Source: Methylobacillus glycogenes JCM 2850 (GTDB lineage Bacteria > Pseudomonadota > Gammaproteobacteria > Burkholderiales > Methylophilaceae). From it: a stretch of 64,000 nt of DNA. Of the stretch, positions 53,679 to 63,377 are shown piece by piece; within the stretch, counting starts at the first letter, position 1, and each line of letters begins with the position of its first letter. The translations under genes were made by a program, and so were the position numbers. Below the pieces are notes generated by a model. It was given only the letters and a program-made list of their open reading frames with translations, was not told the origin of the DNA and did no database searches. Location: the NCBI RefSeq assembly GCF_000617925.1, contig NZ_BAMT01000001.1, positions 124,001-188,000 of the forward strand. Reading direction: 5' to 3'.

Positions 53679-53819
53679 GCTAGCCGGATGGGCGGCTTAT
53701 GGAGTGAGTCGCCCTTCATGACCTAGCACACCAGCCAGCTTGGCTGGATATGAACTTGTGTCATGCATGACCACCGAGCTTTACCCCTTGGTCATGCCCC
53801 TTACTACAAGGATATCCGC

Positions 53820-54269
53820 ATGGAACGAATGGCGGCATTGCAGAGCCGACCCTGGGTTTTTGCTCACGCCAGGGTCATTCATGATGTATTCGTTCTTGCA
53901 GGTTTATCCCTTGTTTCACTGGCTTTATGGTCAGCTTCGGCCCAGGCGGCCCAGCCAGATCATCCCAGCCTTGCCTATACCTACCCCTCACATACCCTGA
54001 CTCTGGCTGCCTCTTGCGCGGTCTGTCATGGGACTAATGGCCATAGTGCCAGTGGTATGTTGGGTTTGGCTGGCATGCCCGCTGCACAATTCATCAGCAA
54101 GCTACAGGCTTATCGCGCTGGCAGCTTGCCCGCTACCGTCATGCACCAGCATGCGCGCGGCCTGACCGAAACCGAAATTCAAGCCTTGGCGCAGTATTTC
54201 TCAGCACAAAGTCCGGGCAAAACCGTGCTGGAGCCACAGCCGCAAGCGCTGGAGCAAGATCATGACTAG
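53820..54269 (+). CDS. Exported mono-haem cytochrome c
   Basis: 149 residues from ATG 53820 (AAGGA 7 bases upstream); an upstream ATG at 53763 lacks a ribosome site. A long hydrophobic signal (VLAGLSLVSLALWSASAQA) precedes CAVCHGTNG (CxxCH) and a class I cytochrome fold with methionine candidates in SGMLGLAGMPAAQF. It overlaps the next gene by 8 bases, the flavoprotein subunit of a flavocytochrome c, so it is probably that enzyme's electron acceptor. Confidence 0.88.
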   Translation: MERMAALQSRPWVFAHARVIHDVFVLAGLSLVSLALWSASAQAAQPDHPSLAYTYPSHTLTLAASCAVCHGTNGHSASGMLGLAGMPAAQFISKLQAYRAGSLPATVMHQHARGLTETEIQALAQYFSAQSPGKTVLEPQPQALEQDHD

Positions 54270-55564
54270 CCCCTTGAGCAGCACGCGCCGGGATGTCCTC
54301 AAGCAATTGGCAATTGCCAGCCTGGGCGTAACAGGCGCAACCCCCTGGCTGCATGCCTTGGCAGGCCAGCCATCAGGCATCAACACCCCAGTCAAGTAGG
54401 GTAGTGGTGGTAGGCGCAGGGTTTGCTGGTGCCACCCTGGCCAAGTATCTGCGTCTCTGGAGCAATTACGGCGTGGAGGTGATAGTGGTGGAGCAGAACC
54501 GCCAGTTTATCTCTTGCCCGCTGAGTAATCTGGTGCTGGGCGGCAGTCGTGAGTTGTCCTCACTGACTTTTGGCTATGACATGCTGCAACGCCATCATGG
54601 CATTCAATGGGTGCATGATCAGGTGACCGCCATAGACCCGGAGCGGCGCAAGCTCACCCTGCTGCGTGGTGAGCTTAGCTATGACAGACTAGTGCTGGCC
54701 CCAGGTGTGGATTTTGATTATTCAGCCTGGCCAGAATTGGCTGAGGCTTCAGCGCGTGCCGATTTGCCCCATGCCTGGAAAGCCGGGCCGCAAACCCAGC
54801 TATTGCGCAAGCAGCTAGAAGCCATGCCTGATGGTGGCGTGTTTGCCATCAGCATACCCAAAGCGCCTTTCCGCTGCCCACCCGGGCCTTATGAGCGTAT
54901 TTGTCAGGTGGCGCACTATCTCAAGCAGCACAAGCCCAAAAGCAAGATTATCGTGCTGGATGCCAACCCCGATATCATTGCCAAAAAACCCCTATTTAGC
55001 CGCGCCTGGCAAGAGTTATACCCCGGCCTGATTGATTACCGCCCCAATAGCAGTGTGCTGCATGTGCAAGCGGCACAACACAAGCTGGAAACCGAGTTTG
55101 AGCAGATCAGCGCCGATGTTATCAACCTGATTCCGCCGCAACTGGCGGGCAAGGTGGCGCAGATGGCCGGGCTTAATAATGTGGATAGCCGCTGGTGCAA
55201 GGTGGATTTTCGCAGCTATGCCTCCAGCCTGGCGCCGGAAATCCATGTGCTGGGTGACGCGATATTTTCACCGCAACCCAAATCCGCGCATATTGCCACC
55301 TCGCACGCCCATGTCTGCGCCAATGCCATAGTGGCGCTGCTGCGTGGCGAAGCGCCAGACCCGGAGCCTGTATTTGCCAATACTTGCTATAGCTTTGTCA
55401 GCGATGACGCTGCCATGCATGTGGCCAATGTCTACCGCTATGATGCGGCCAAAGAGCTGATGGTGACCATGGAAGGCGGTGGTTTATCAGAAGCCGCTTC
55501 AACCCTGGAGGGAACCTATGCCTTATCGTGGGCTCGTAATATCTGGTCAGACACCTTAACCTGA
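54262..55564 (+). CDS. fccB: Flavocytochrome c sulfide dehydrogenase flavoprotein subunit (one apparent frameshift)
   Basis: The full protein begins at ATG 54262 with a Tat-type signal (STRRDVLKQLAIASLGVTG). The FAD Rossmann motif RVVVVGAGFAGATLAKYLR follows in another frame; one extra base or two missing bases near 54396-54400 account for the break. FCSD landmarks are strong: FISCPLSNLVLGGSREL, GPYERICQVAHYLK preceded by PFRCPP, and ANTCYSFV. The two cysteines in PFRCPP and ANTCYS correspond to the redox disulfide of FCSD. Oxidises sulfide or a related thiol in the periplasm with a cytochrome c acceptor. Confidence 0.86.
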
Positions 55565-55577
55565 AGCGGAAGCGGCT

Positions 55578-56844
55578 ATGCTCAAGCAAATGATTACGCA
55601 CCATAACAAAGACAACCCCTTATCTCATCGCGCTAGCAGATTAGCCAAGCAAAGCAGCTGATGCCCGCCTTGCTGGCCAGCGCCAGCCTGATGGCATGTA
55701 CCACGGTGGCGGCCGTTAGCCCGGTGCCCAATGATATTGCCTCCAGCCTCAAGCTGGCCCCGGGTTTTAGCATCTCCACTTTTGCCAAACTCAACCCTGG
55801 CAAGGGTGAAGCTTTTCGTGAGCCGCGTTTTATGGCGTTTGGCCCGGATGGCAATCTCTATGTTGCCAGCAGCAGTGATGACAAAATCTATATGCTGCCA
55901 GACAGCAACCATGATGGCGTGGCCGATGAGATAGTCACTGCGGTGACTGGTCTCAATGCCCCCAACAGCCTGATTTTTGCTGATGGCAAAATGCTGGTCT
56001 CCAATCAGGATGGCGTGGTGCGTGTGGTGCAAGAATCAGGCAAATGGCCCGCCAAGAAACTGGAACCCATCATCAAGGGCTTGCCCACAGGCGGGCATAC
56101 GCTCAAGACTGTGCGCCTGGGGCCGGATAAGCACTTGTATCTGAATGTAGGCTCTAGCTGTAATGTCTGCGTGGAGAAAGACCCGCTACGCGCCACCATC
56201 TTGCGCTACACCCTGGATGGCGAGCCTGCAGGCTCACCTGATGGCAGTGTCAGTGGCAGCAAGAGCGCGGTGTGGGCCTCGGGCCTGCGCAACTCCCAAG
56301 GCATGGCCTGGCAGCCTGGCAGCATGATCTTTATGCCACCAACAATGGTGCTGACATGCGCTCTGGCACCAAAGATGGCGCTGCCAATGATGAATTGCCG
56401 CCCGAGCACATCAACCATATTGAGCCGGACAAGCACTATGGCTGGCCACATTGCTGGGGCAAACAGTTCACTGACCCCAATTTCCCTGGCAAGCCAGGGT
56501 TCTGTGCCACTACCCAGCCGCCCGCGATTACCATACGCGCGCATACTACGCCCTTAGGCATTACCTTCCTTGATCAGGCCAAATTCCCCAGTGAATACAA
56601 GCAGGATGCTATTGTTGCGCTGCATGGTTCATGGAACCGCACCGAGCCAGATGGCTATAAACTGGTGCGTGTGAAGTTCAAGGCGGGCAAGCCTGTTGCG
56701 GTTGAAGATTTTGTCAGCGGCTGGTTGCAGGGCAAAAGCGCCTGGGGCCGTCCTGTGGATGTAGTGGTAGGGCCTGATGGCGCGCTCTACGTCTCCGATG
56801 ACAGGGCTGGCTTGATTTACCGTATTCACTACAACAAAAACTAG
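55578..56844 (+). CDS. Sorbosone-dehydrogenase-like lipoprotein propeller (one or two apparent frameshifts)
   Basis: A PQQ-type/L-sorbosone dehydrogenase-like beta propeller. Visible landmarks are EPRFMAFGPDGNLYVASSSD, GGHTLKTVRLGPDKHLYLNV, VWASGLRNSQGMAW and FKAGKPVAVEDFVSG. A break near 56323 is repaired by one added C (AGCCATGAT), giving HDLYATNNGADMRSG and HYGWPHCWG. The hydrophobic LLASASLMACTT is a lipobox, so it is probably a lipoprotein. ATG 55661 is the first start in this frame; a frame from ATG 55578, 14 bases after fccB, joins it if one base is missing near 55655. The substrate, and whether PQQ is bound, are unknown. Confidence 0.72.
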
Positions 56845-59299: not shown

Positions 59300-61186
59300 T
59301 TAAATCAAATTCATTTCCCGCATACGCCGGTATAGCGTATTGCGGCTAATGCCCAGTTGGCGGGCAGCCGCCGATACATTGCCAGCATGCGCCTGTACCG
59401 CTGCTTTAACCGCTTCCGCCGTCAAACTGGTGAGAGATTCATTGCCACGCTCATCCTGACGCGCATCCAGATCAGCCAGAAAATCTCCGGTCAGGTGCAG
59501 CAGCGAGATGGCATCCGGGCCAGACAAGGCCAGCGCCGTGCGCAATACATTGTGTAGCTGACGCATATTGCCGGGCCAGGGGTGGCTCTCAAACAAGGCC
59601 ATCACTTCTTCAGTAATGACTTTGCCGCTGGCATTTTCAGTCTGCAAAATCGTCTCTACCAGCGTGCGCAAGTCTTCGCGCTGGCGCAAGGCGGGCAGGC
59701 TGACGGTTAAGCCATTGAGGCGATAATAAAGGTCGCGCCTGAATTCTCCAGTTTCTACTTTTTCGCGTAGTTTTTGATTGGTGGCACTGAGCAGTACAAA
59801 GTCCACAGGCTTGGATTTGCTGCTGCCCAGTGGCGTTACGCTGCGTTCCTGCAACACGCGCAGCAGTCTGGCCTGTAGAGATAAAGCATATCGCCAATTT
59901 CATCCAGAAACAGCGTGCCACCATCGGCCTGCTCCAGCTTGCCAGGGCTGCCCTTGCGTCTGGCCCCGGTGAAAGCACCTTCTTCATAACCAAATAACTC
60001 GGCTTCAATCAGCCTTCTGGCAGTGCGGCGCAGTTGACTGCAATCCAGGGGCCTTTGCTGCGTTGGCTGGCTTCATGAATGGCACGCGCAAATAACTCCT
60101 TGCCTGCGCCAGTCTCGCCTTCAATTAGGATGGGAATATCCAGATCCAGCACACGCTCCACCTGGCTGATGACCTGGGCGACGCGGCTATCACCAGTATT
60201 AAGCATTTGCAGGCTGGCCGCACACGTACGGCTTGTGGGGCGGCTGTTATGAGCTGGCTGCTCCTTGGCGTGTACTTGGCGCAGCTCCATACGCGCATAA
60301 ATCCGCGCCTGCTGGCTGGTTTGCAGCGGGAAAATCACGGACTGAGCGGCCTGGAAATGCTGCTGCGGCAGGCTGGCAAATAAATCAGTGAAACTCAGGC
60401 CTGCCAGATGATCATGCGCTAATGCCAGCTGAAACTGACCGCTGCGATTGATGGCCACCAAGCGGTGCTCGGCATTGAAAATGGCAATGCCTTCCCACAG
60501 CGTGCCTATGAATTCGGGGCGGGAGTGGAAATGCAGGGAATATTCGCCCGCATGGCTGGCCGTGAATAAACGGTTTTCTATCATCTGTGCCGACATGCGC
60601 ACCAAAGCCAGCGTGTGCTGCTGCGGCAGCTTGGCATCGGTGGAGACATCCAGTGTGCCCATCACCTGATTATGCGCATTGAAAATAGGCACAGCAGAGC
60701 AGCCCAGCACGTGGTTGCGGTCTAGAAAGTGCTCAGCGCCTTGTACCGTCATGGCGGTACGCTCAACCAGCGCCGTACCAATAGCGTTAGTACCTCTGAG
60801 ACTTTCCTGCCATGAACTGCCCGGTATCAGCGCTATGCGCTGGCTGTCATCCAAAAACTCACTATTGCCACGGCTATCAAGAATAAAGCTTCATGATCGG
60901 TGAGCACAATCACGCTGCGCGTGTGGCTGATTTGCTCATTGAGGCTATCCATTTCTGGCCTGGCCTGAGCCAGCAGCAAATGGTTGGCTTCCTGCTTCAG
61001 CAGTAATTCCTGCCGCGTGAGGATTTCTGTCCTGACCTGAGACCCCACCTCCATGCCATTGTCCAGGCAGCGCTGCCATGAGCGGGCGATCTCTTGCGGC
61101 AGCTTGCCGTTTTCTACCACGCCACGTGAGAGAAACTCACGGCGGGCATCTAGAAGCTGGGCATGATTGGGCGCGGAATTTTGCAT
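59300..61186 (-). CDS. AcoR-type sigma-54-dependent activator (three apparent frameshifts)
   Basis: About 628 residues. An N-terminal GAF-type sensor region ([60 protein letters not shown]) is followed by an AAA+ domain with Walker [16 protein letters not shown], the sigma-54 contact motif GAFTGA and Walker [12 protein letters not shown], then a Fis-type helix-turn-helix ([17 protein letters not shown]). Breaks near 60884, 60011 and 59886 are each repaired by one added base. Start ATG 61186. It is divergent from xoxF, which has a sigma-54 promoter, so control of xoxF is the natural inference. Confidence 0.86.
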
Positions 61187-61400
61187 GATGAAACCTGATG
61201 ATCTATTTAATGCGTCATGGATAAATTGCGGAATTCTATGTTGCCGAGGGGGGTGTTCCAGCCAATGTAGCACCTGTTCAATCCTGACACAACCAAGTCA
61301 AATCATGTTATCAGGGTTGCTAGTAATTGTTAGCTGGCTAATTTAAAAATAACTATATTATTCAATGCCATGAAGTTGTTGTGTAAAAATTTTTATGAGC

Positions 61401-61416
61401 TGGCACAGGCCTTGCC
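61401..61416 (+). promoter_or_regulatory. Sigma-54 (-24/-12) promoter of xoxF
   Basis: TGGCACAGGCCTTGCC agrees with the sigma-54 consensus TGGCACR-N4-TTGCW at all fixed positions except the last: GG near -24, GC near -12, 10 bases between. It lies about 90 bases before the xoxF start and downstream of a 215-base gap shared with the divergent sigma-54 activator gene. Confidence 0.85.
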
Positions 61417-61505
61417 ATATGCATAGCACTGGGAAAAACTCCCAGAGAGAAGTTGGCGAAGTAAGCACCATAAAAATTATTCTGCAACAGACTATGGAGA
61501 ATGGC

Positions 61506-63377
61506 ATGAGAGTAAAAACAATCAATCTGGCATTGGCTGCCAGCTTGTTGGGCGCAATGGCAAGTTCGGCGCTGGCTAGCACTGATCTGGAAAAGCTCAT
61601 GAAGGATGATGGGCAATGGGCGCATCCGCGCAAGGACTACAGCAACACCGGCTATAGCTCGCTGGCGCAAATCAACAAAGACAACGTAAAGAACCTCAAG
61701 TACAGCTGGACCTTTGCCACCGGAGTGACCCGTGGTCACGAAGGTGCGCCACTGGTGATTGATGGCGTGATGTATATCCATACCGCCTTCCCCAACAATG
61801 TGTACGCGCTGGATCTCAACAACAACCAGAAAATCATCTGGTCTTACTTCCCCAAGCAAGACCCTGCGGTGCAGGCGCTGCTGTGCTGCGATAACGTAAA
61901 CCGTGGCCTGGGGTATGGCGATGGCAAGATTTTCCTGCAACAGAATGATGGCGTGCTGGTGGCCATGGACGCCAAGACTGGTAAAAAGGTTTGGGATGTA
62001 AAAGTGGTTGATACCAAGTCTGGCGCTTCCACCACCAATGCCCCACACATCATCAAGGACAAAGTCATCACTGGCTGCTCCGGTGGTGAGTATGGCGTAC
62101 GTTGCTACATCACGGCTTACAACATCAAGGATGGCAGCCTGGTATGGCGTGCCTATAGCACAGGCTCAGATGCCGATGCGCTGATAGGCAAGGACTTCAA
62201 CAAGGAAAACCCGCACTACAGCGCGCTTTCTCTCTATGAAGATGTCAATGGCGGCAATAAGGAGGGTGGCTCTTTCAAGGCTTTACCCAAGGAAAAGCTC
62301 AAGTTCCCGGAAACTGACCTGGGTATCAAAACCTGGCTTAAGCCGCAGCAGGTCAAGAATGGCTGGGAACATGGTGGCGGCCCCACCTGGGGCTGGTACT
62401 CCTATGACCCTGCGCTCAACCTGATGTATTACGGCACTGGCAACCCCGGCACCTGGAACCCGGATGTACGCCCAGGCGACAACAAATGGTCCATGACCAT
62501 CTTTGCGCGCGATGCAGATACTGGCATGGCGCGCTGGGGCTACCAGATGACACCGCATGACGAGTGGGATTATGACGGCATGAACGAGATCATCCTTTGG
62601 GATGCGGAAGGCAAAAAGCTGGCCACGCATTTTGACCGTAATGGCTTCGGTTATACCTTTGACCGCAGCAACGGCAGCCTGGTTGTGGCCGAAAAAATGC
62701 ATCCCTTCGTCAACTGGGCCAAATCCATAGACCTGAAGAGCGGCATACCGCAGAAAGACCCTAAGTACTCCACCCACCAGGATTACAACGCCCAGGGCAT
62801 TTGCCCTTCGGCGCTGGGGGTGAAGGATGAGCAACCTGCGGCCTACTCGCCACGTACCAAGCTGTTCTATGTGCCGCTCAACCATGTGTGCATGACCTAT
62901 GAACCGACCGAGTCCAAGTACATCGCGGGTCAACCCTGGGTAGGTGCCACCCTGACCATGTTTGCTGGCCCTGATGGCGTGATGGGCGGCTTTATGGCTT
63001 GGGATGGCCTCAAGGGCAAGTCACGCTGGTACAACAAAGAGAAATTCTCCGCCTGGGGTGGTGCCCTGGTCACGGGTTCTGACCTGGTGTTCTATGGCAC
63101 ACTGGATCGCTGGTTCAAGGCGCTAGATGCCAAGACTGGCAAGGAATTGTGGAAGGCACAAGTCGGCTCTGGTGTAGTAGGTAACGCCATCACCTACACC
63201 CACAAGGGCAAGCAGTATGTTGGCGTGCTCTCCGGCATAGGCGGCTGGGCAGGCGTGGCCATGAACCTGGGTCTGGAAAACGAGACCGATGGCCTGGGTG
63301 CAGCAGGTGGCTACAAGGAGCTCAAGGACTGGAACGCCGCCCCTGGTGGTGGTGCCATGAATGTGTTCAGCCTGTAG
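61506..63377 (+). CDS. xoxF: Lanthanide-dependent methanol dehydrogenase XoxF
   Basis: 623 residues from ATG 61506 (GGAG 6 bases upstream). Signal peptide MRVKTINLALAASLLGAMAS with cleavage near ALAST. PQQ quinoprotein propeller; the adjacent-cysteine disulfide is at 127-128 (LLCCDNVNRG). PHDEWDYDG holds the catalytic Asp355 and Asp357; the second Asp is the extra lanthanide ligand that distinguishes XoxF from calcium-type MxaF, which has Ala there. Oxidises methanol to formaldehyde/formate in the periplasm. Subtype may be XoxF4, common in Methylophilaceae. No xoxG or xoxJ follows. Confidence 0.95.
   Translation: MRVKTINLALAASLLGAMASSALASTDLEKLMKDDGQWAHPRKDYSNTGYSSLAQINKDNVKNLKYSWTFATGVTRGHEGAPLVIDGVMYIHTAFPNNVYALDLNNNQKIIWSYFPKQDPAVQALLCCDNVNRGLGYGDGKIFLQQNDGVLVAMDAKTGKKVWDVKVVDTKSGASTTNAPHIIKDKVITGCSGGEYGVRCYITAYNIKDGSLVWRAYSTGSDADALIGKDFNKENPHYSALSLYEDVNGGNKEGGSFKALPKEKLKFPETDLGIKTWLKPQQVKNGWEHGGGPTWGWYSYDPALNLMYYGTGNPGTWNPDVRPGDNKWSMTIFARDADTGMARWGYQMTPHDEWDYDGMNEIILWDAEGKKLATHFDRNGFGYTFDRSNGSLVVAEKMHPFVNWAKSIDLKSGIPQKDPKYSTHQDYNAQGICPSALGVKDEQPAAYSPRTKLFYVPLNHVCMTYEPTESKYIAGQPWVGATLTMFAGPDGVMGGFMAWDGLKGKSRWYNKEKFSAWGGALVTGSDLVFYGTLDRWFKALDAKTGKELWKAQVGSGVVGNAITYTHKGKQYVGVLSGIGGWAGVAMNLGLENETDGLGAAGGYKELKDWNAAPGGGAMNVFSL

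What the first reader, a model, noticed from the sequence alone, without database searches (positions are those of the whole stretch)
61187..61505. xoxF appears to be under sigma-54 control by a divergently encoded AcoR-type activator
The xoxF upstream region holds a near-perfect -24/-12 element (61401-61416), and the divergent neighbour is a GAF-AAA-Fis activator with an intact GAFTGA motif. Methanol dehydrogenases studied in detail are controlled by two-component systems (MxbDM, MxcQE) and the lanthanide switch in Methylobacterium; a sigma-54 enhancer-binding protein acting directly on a lanthanide methanol dehydrogenase would be a different design. The GAF domain could sense an alcohol, aldehyde or other small molecule. 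An imperfect dyad at 61273-61291 (TGTTCA-ATCC-TGACACA) is a possible activator site.
Basis: partly seen in the sequence, partly recalled or inferred. Interest (0 to 1): 0.75.

Follow-up and report, generated by a model that had tools for sequence, protein, structure and literature searches.

The report
Sigma-54 switch for lanthanide methanol dehydrogenase
In bacteria that eat methanol, one lineage of the rare-earth-dependent methanol dehydrogenase gene xoxF carries a conserved sigma-54 promoter element and a conserved box beside a divergent activator gene, so it is likely switched on by that activator, which would make it a different kind of control from the two-component systems known for this enzyme.

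Summary
Among 46 xoxF loci from GTDB genomes the strict element lies upstream in 34 of 34 with a divergent activator and 1 of 12 without. Seven further promoter regions, not used to define the motifs but mostly from close kin, all carry both. The activators beside xoxF form one clade, within a wider Burkholderiales family often found near alcohol-oxidation cytochromes or aldehyde dehydrogenases. Novimethylophilus xoxF lacks the neighbouring activator but has box and element; a genome taken as M. flagellatus has activator and box without xoxF or strict element. This fits xoxF activation by sigma-54 polymerase and this activator, likely bound at the box; the signal (alcohol or aldehyde) is a guess. 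No expression test was possible. Caveat: in this assembly the activator gene has three frame breaks, probably sequencing errors. A 2024 review legend already lists such a regulator in drawn MDH clusters. No claim of sigma-54 control of xoxF was found (not every listed paper opened).

The parts
61506..63377 (+). xoxF, 623 aa, lanthanide-type PQQ methanol dehydrogenase; by linkage and neighbours of its kin probably the XoxF4-2 (Mmol_1770) type
   Evidence: TIGR03075 651.7 bits, above its cut-off; aligned to XoxF1 of M. extorquens (6oc5) with both metal-site Asp of the WD-x-D motif (residue numbers)
61401..61416 (+). -24/-12 sigma-54 promoter element TGGCACAGGCCTTGCC
61266..61291 (+). conserved 26-base box, likely the activator's binding site; ends 109 bases before the element
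61425..61428 (+). predicted transcription start, about 12 bases after the GC of the -12 element (inferred)
   Evidence: position arithmetic
61496..61501 (+). likely ribosome-binding site GGAGAA of xoxF
   Evidence: sequence
59300..61186 (-). divergent GAF-AAA+-Fis sigma-54 activator gene, broken into four frames in this assembly
60878..61186 (-). activator piece 1 (N-terminal region)
   Evidence: 90% identical to P0003 residues 1-103
60012..60887 (-). activator piece 2 (GAF, start of AAA+)
   Evidence: 93% identical to P0003 residues 101-392
59887..60012 (-). activator piece 3 (GAFTGA loop)
   Evidence: 100% identical to P0003 residues 393-434
59303..59884 (-). activator piece 4 (rest of AAA+, lid, Fis-type HTH)
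   Evidence: 94% identical to P0003 residues 436-629

Best explanation
The xoxF gene carries a conserved -24/-12 element and, 109 bases further upstream, a conserved 26-base box, and it is predicted to be transcribed by sigma-54 RNA polymerase only when the divergently encoded GAF-AAA+-Fis activator, likely bound at that box, opens the promoter in response to a small molecule that is likely an alcohol or aldehyde. Shown by sequence: the element, the box, the divergent activator, a single rpoN match in the genome, and their joint conservation on one xoxF lineage of Methylophilaceae. Inferred: box binding by this activator; DNA looping and ATP-driven promoter opening (established for sigma-54 activators with a GAFTGA loop; recalled); ligand sensing by the GAF domain; and the chemical class of the ligand, from the company the wider activator family keeps. 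Also inferred: the three frame breaks here are assembly errors and the living strain has a working activator.
For: 1) Strict element upstream of 34 of 34 activator-linked and 1 of 12 activator-less GTDB xoxF loci; Fisher p 9e-10 (loci are related, so this overstates independence); 0.17 of 46 expected from resampled upstream sequences; one element in each of the 35, 87-136 bases before the start. 2) Box: with the locus's own group (eight groups, Methylobacillus split in three) left out of the matrix, it beat all 100 resampled sequences in 33 of 38 loci (in L067, L069 and L071 of these the best hit is on the other strand close by). The best score in 18 activator-less xoxF upstream regions was 3.6 bits, against 4.9-37.1 in the 38, which made the matrix. 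3) Seven promoter regions not among the 38, one of them on a contig whose length matches that of a protein named Methyloradius palustris (a genus not used), all carry both; most are close kin of used loci. 4) In six Methylobacillus genomes a degenerate box pattern hits 9 places, 8 of them at xoxF; the backward control hits 1 (the pattern was made from these loci, so the scarcity elsewhere is what counts; it missed G004's second copy and the orphan box in G003). 5) Activators beside xoxF form one clade with the G003 orphan inside, SH-aLRT 98, quick tree. 6) Two natural tests: Novimethylophilus xoxF has box and element without a neighbouring activator, and the activator nearest to the xoxF clade sits in that genome beside an aldehyde dehydrogenase with a box (17.0 bits) and strict element; G003 (taken as M. 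flagellatus) has activator and box where xoxF and strict element are missing. 7) One rpoN match in each of 6 genus genomes. 8) No sigma-70-like site faces xoxF.
Against: No transcript, binding or mutant data. The activator frame is broken in this assembly. The box failed its left-out test in L056, L061, L062 and L090, and 2 of 100 resampled sequences reached L083's score; each of the 38 regions yields a best hit by construction, the weakest (L056, 4.9 bits) hardly above the negatives. Element and box do not show that sigma-54 is the only promoter; a weak sigma-70 promoter could be missed by the scan. The ligand is unknown. The neighbour counts outside the family have no background control. In the G003 orphan gap an 8-of-12 site with the right spacing remains, though such a site occurs in 25% of random pieces. 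The predicted activator structure was poor (mean pLDDT 64) and was not used.
Confidence: 0.82

Rival explanations
1. The activator is a decayed pseudogene in this strain; xoxF keeps a relic sigma-54 promoter that is silent or is served in trans by the paralogous activator beside the second xoxF (C18).
For: Three frame breaks in the gene; an intact paralogous activator lies divergent to a second xoxF in the same genome with a related box and a strict element.
Against: Third-position excess in the four pieces (45 of 71, 144 of 225, 18 of 21 and 94 of 146 differences) and 90-100% identity to an intact relative; other genes in the assembly are broken too; the window box is identical to the M. arboreus and M. 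caricis boxes.
Confidence: 0.13
2. The box and element belong to this system, but another input (lanthanide switch, sigma-70 promoter, two-component regulator) dominates, and sigma-54 has only a minor or condition-specific role.
For: In published transcriptomes the M. mobilis gene Mmol_1770 rises only 4-6 fold in situ over laboratory cultures, and the M. versatilis homologue is very low in each condition (PMC3728764, section 11 read).
Against: No sigma-70-like site faces xoxF; the -24/-12 is conserved throughout the activator-linked loci; the M. glucosotrophus homologue rises 100-fold in situ, although to a relatively low level, which would fit a tightly shut promoter.
Confidence: 0.2
3. The box is the binding site of another regulator, or serves only autoregulation of the activator gene.
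For: The box lies about 80 bases from the activator start and is present beside the activator where xoxF is missing (L200).
Against: It is also present upstream of Novimethylophilus xoxF, where no activator gene adjoins, and was not found upstream of 18 activator-less xoxF genes; nine regions upstream of aldehyde-dehydrogenase-linked activators in family genomes scored -3.2 to 13.0 bits, and those activators have A where the xoxF-linked ones nearly always have N in the HTH.
Confidence: 0.1
4. Chance match of a degenerate promoter motif.
For: The pattern occurs 55 times in the genome, some surely without function.
Against: Present in 34 of 34 activator-linked loci against 0.17 of 46 expected and in 7 of 7 further regions.
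Confidence: 0.01

Closest known systems
MmoR / sMMO operon of methanotrophs
   Same: Sigma-54 -24/-12 promoter and a GAF-related activator encoded with a C1-oxidation enzyme (PMC5874634, passages read).
   Different: Controls methane monooxygenase, not methanol dehydrogenase; mmoR lies in the mmo operon rather than divergent to it.
BmoR of Thauera butanivorans
   Same: Sigma-54-dependent activator listed with C2-C8 n-alkanols as inducers (PMC8784404, passages read).
   Different: Controls butane monooxygenase; no sequence comparison was made here.
AcoR / DhaR type activators
   Same: GAF-(PAS)-AAA+-Fis layout; DhaR is the only NCBIfam model shown that spans the whole protein (M. mobilis 13 copy) and 4lrx, a DhaR chain, the only PDB match of the sensor half at E <= 1e-5. 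JGI names some relatives regulator of acetoin/glycerol metabolism.
   Different: No curated NCBIfam cut-off shown is reached; no AcoR sequence was compared; target genes differ.
Sigma-54 control of ExaA in Azospirillum (Singh 2017)
   Same: A PQQ alcohol dehydrogenase under sigma-54.
   Different: Reported together with a LuxR-type regulator, by its title; only the reference-list entry was seen.
MxbDM, MxcQE, MxaY/MxaB, PedS2/PedR2
   Same: Regulators of lanthanide-dependent or calcium-dependent PQQ alcohol dehydrogenases (PMC11845868, passages read).
   Different: Described there as sensor kinases and response regulators; none is called sigma-54 dependent in the passages read. For M. flagellatus the review says that two two-component systems did not change in protein level with La.

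Membership tests
Sigma-54-dependent promoter | GG and GC dinucleotides at -24/-12 with fixed spacing, core TGGCAY-N5-TTGC | tested here: met
   consensus also printed in PMC5874634
Sigma-54-dependent promoter | Transcription start about 12 bases downstream, RpoN dependence | not testable with these tools
   needs 5' mapping and an rpoN mutant
Sigma-54-dependent promoter | rpoN present in the genome | tested here: met
   one match
GAF-AAA+-Fis enhancer-binding protein | GAF, Sigma54_activat and HTH_8 domains, no receiver domain | tested here: met
   on four relatives; on the window's pieces (piece 1 gave no family)
GAF-AAA+-Fis enhancer-binding protein | GAFTGA loop | tested here: met
   invariant in 30 aligned relatives; present in window piece 59887-60012
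GAF-AAA+-Fis enhancer-binding protein | One intact reading frame in this assembly | tested here: not met
   three frame breaks, probably sequencing errors
DhaR, NorR, PrpR, NifA, NtrC equivalogs (NCBIfam) | Score above the curated cut-off | tested here: not met
   none of the 25 shown per intact activator reaches it
XoxF lanthanide methanol dehydrogenase | PQQ methanol/ethanol family and the second metal-site Asp two residues after the catalytic Asp | tested here: met
XoxF4-2 (Mmol_1770) subclade | Groups with the M. mobilis Mmol_1770 type, with the small cytochrome next door in Methylotenera | tested here: inconclusive
   M. mobilis 13 copy with adjacent 108-aa cytochrome in the same clade (support 91); the window itself lacks that neighbour; locus-tag identity inferred

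The most novel reading that the evidence does not exclude
Across Methylophilaceae one lineage of the lanthanide methanol dehydrogenase was captured by a one-component sigma-54 switch taken over from an aldehyde/alcohol-oxidation regulator family, so that methanol oxidation is gated by a cytoplasmic small-molecule sensor rather than by a membrane two-component lanthanide sensor. In Novimethylophilus a single activator would run both xoxF and an aldehyde dehydrogenase in trans, and in M. flagellatus the orphan activator would act on the remaining xoxF or on nothing.
Probability: 0.6. Interest if true: 0.75.

Novelty: new variant of a known kind. Interest (0 to 1): 0.6.

Why it matters
The lanthanide switch, in the review passages read here, rests on two-component systems in other lineages; for the Methylophilaceae I saw no named regulator of xoxF. 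A concrete promoter, a binding site, a named activator and two natural rearrangements make the question testable in M. mobilis or M. flagellatus. Control by a substrate- or product-sensing one-component activator would separate methanol sensing from lanthanide sensing, and could supply an alcohol- or aldehyde-responsive regulatory part.

Tried and rejected
Chance motif: rejected by conservation. Shared control of the small cytochrome gene in the second Methylobacillus type (L127, L134): no element of 9 or more and no box upstream. Other members of the regulon in the genus: one box-pattern hit outside xoxF (G004:C3:117537), followed only to its neighbours. Structure of the activator: mean pLDDT 64, so no fold search was made. 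NCBIfam naming: no cut-off shown was reached. Helical phasing of box-to-element gaps (90-143): considered, not claimed.

Failures of my own: one search stopped on a missing key and was rerun. The first scan read loci on the minus strand on the wrong side; those that matter were re-fetched and oriented.

Literature limits: Keltjens 2014 and Hemmann 2023 could not be read, so whether they say more about the regulator than the review legend does is not known. Of six papers that hold xoxF together with sigma-54 or rpoN terms, passages of PMC11845868, PMC5874634 and PMC12403871 were read; PMC5623727, PMC11237559 and PMC6754898 were seen only in the listing. One search listed 30 of 1,166.

Full report
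What is there. xoxF runs from 61506 to 63377 (+), with a likely ribosome site GGAGAA just before it. It is a PQQ methanol dehydrogenase (TIGR03075) and aligns to M. extorquens XoxF1 with the second Asp of the lanthanide site (residue numbers of XoxF1 from PMC11845868). Upstream on the same strand is TGGCACAGGCCTTGCC at 61401-61416, predicting a start near 61427. The divergent gene at 59300-61186 (-) encodes a GAF, sigma-54 AAA+, Fis-HTH activator. Its frame is broken three times. The four pieces are 90-100% identical to an intact 629-residue relative (P0003) and differ from M. arboreus mostly at third codon positions. Another gene in the window and two further xoxF copies in the genome are frame-broken too. 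I therefore take the breaks as probable sequencing errors; I cannot prove it.

Is it more than chance? The degenerate pattern YTGGCAYNNNNNTTGC occurs 55 times in the genome, so the match alone would be suggestive only. A scan of GTDB genomes with patterns from this xoxF, which finds close relatives only, returned 46 loci, by record title from Methylophilaceae or from bacteria named no further than order, class or phylum. A divergent activator within 600 bases is present in 34. The strict element TGGCAY-N5-TTGC lies within 400 bases upstream in 34 of those 34, and in 1 of the 12 without an activator (Fisher p 9e-10, though the loci are related). Resampled upstream sequences gave 0.17 of 46.

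The binding box. A matrix search was run on 38 regions between activator and element (34 GTDB loci, L050, two genus loci and the window). Every region gives a best hit by construction; what matters is that all 38 best hits lie on the same strand, 90-143 bases before the element and in 35 of 38 between 102 and 123, with consensus TGTAACACCTGTTCAATTTTGACACA and 4.9-37.1 bits. Leaving out each of eight groups in turn, 33 of 38 beat all of 100 resampled sequences; L056, L061, L062 and L090 did not, and 2 of 100 reached L083. In 18 upstream regions of activator-less xoxF (11 GTDB, 7 from genus genomes) the best score was 3.6 bits, and none of the 18 has the strict element. Twenty further divergent regions were fetched from the 120-genome census; 13 were already among my loci, and the 7 new ones all had element and box; most of the 7 are close kin of loci used. 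In six Methylobacillus genomes a box pattern hit 9 places, 8 at xoxF, with 1 hit of the backward control.

Which xoxF. In a tree of 56 of 64 xoxF sequences held (six duplicates and two broken copies left out), activator-linked genes fall into a 33-row clade (support 91) that also holds the Novimethylophilus copy, and a 5-row Methylobacillus clade (100), with 3 label changes in all. M. mobilis 13 and M. oryzisoli carry a small cytochrome gene directly downstream. This matches the published description of Mmol_1770 with its cytochrome Mmol_1769, 4-6 fold up in situ and among the most expressed genes there; the M. glucosotrophus homologue rises 100-fold in situ but to a relatively low level, and the M. 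versatilis homologue stays very low (PMC3728764, section 11). I infer that the linked lineage is XoxF4-2. A promoter read here as that of M. mobilis (L228, on a contig of the same length, 2547570, as that of protein P0075, named Methylotenera mobilis) has both element and box.

Where the activator comes from. One of those two was read (L200): box present, xoxF and strict element missing, though an 8-of-12 site of a kind found in 25% of random pieces lies there. The window's own pair and one at a contig end (L219) come on top. Outside the family, 28 of the order genomes had a match at that threshold, in a search of 300 that included family members (at most 4 candidates per genome scored); I fetched 19 of the 28. 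In 16 of 19 a PQQ dehydrogenase, cytochrome c550, PedG-like binding protein or ExaC-type aldehyde dehydrogenase lies in the fetched stretch; L195 has only a PQQ match 5 kb off; L183, L189 and L196 have none (the names c550, PedG and ExaC are recalled labels for the Pfam matches, and there is no background control). Five of the 19 have a strict element facing away from the activator, and L198 a sixth outside the stretch scanned there. L185 (cytochrome-linked) has a strong box match of 26 bits; L192 scores 16.7, within the range that single resampled sequences can reach. In a quick tree of 59 activators (28 of 36 xoxF-linked ones used), those beside xoxF are one clade (98) with the G003 orphan inside; the nearest outside row is the Novimethylophilus activator beside an aldehyde dehydrogenase. 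Novimethylophilus xoxF itself has box and element. The simplest account is that a regulator of alcohol and aldehyde oxidation genes was attached to xoxF early in the family; trans control in Novimethylophilus is then expected but untested.

How it likely works. The activator would bind the box, sense a small molecule through its GAF domain, and use its AAA+ ring with the GAFTGA loop to open a sigma-54 promoter (established for this protein class; recalled). One rpoN is present. No sigma-70-like site faces xoxF. The ligand class is a guess from the family's neighbours. Whether lanthanides act here at all is open.

Known or new. Searches for xoxF with sigma-54 or rpoN terms turned up no claim of sigma-54 control of xoxF in the passages I read; three of the six papers that hold both terms were seen only in the listing. 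A 2024 review's figure legend lists a GAF-modulated sigma 54-specific regulator among genes drawn in MDH clusters that include M. mobilis JLW8 (PMC11845868, passages read), so adjacency has probably been drawn before. Keltjens 2014, to which that review refers for MDH genome information, could not be read. Sigma-54 activators of C1 and alkane oxidation (MmoR, BmoR; passages read) and sigma-54 control of exaA (title only) are precedents. I rate it a new variant of a known kind.

Noticed in passing
window 55661-56844 (+): A glucose/sorbosone dehydrogenase (GSDH) gene is split over two frames, another sign of indel errors in this assembly.
   Followed up: partly
G000:C27:235547-237404 and G000:C28:398479-400292: Two more xoxF copies in the same genome are frame-broken and have no activator beside them.
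   Followed up: partly
G000:C27:109247-109746: A sigma-54 activator of the NtrC kind also lies in two frames.
   Followed up: no
L200 (G003:C1:937000-951000): An activator with its box but without xoxF or strict element, next to a DUF455-like gene as in M. arboreus; a second, equally scoring copy lies at 1086062 and was not read.
   Followed up: partly
L150 and L210-L218 (family genomes): Aldehyde-dehydrogenase-linked paralogues of the activator have A where xoxF-linked ones nearly always have N in the HTH; a few show a TGAGAC/GTCTCA-like dyad instead of the box, which I did not test.
   Followed up: partly
L221 (G004:C3:114000-121000): The single box-pattern hit in the genus outside xoxF, among genes that look like TonB receptors and a FecR-type regulator by their first residues only.
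   Followed up: no
window 53763-55564 (+): A weak cytochrome c match and a flavocytochrome c sulfide dehydrogenase flavoprotein lie upstream.
   Followed up: no
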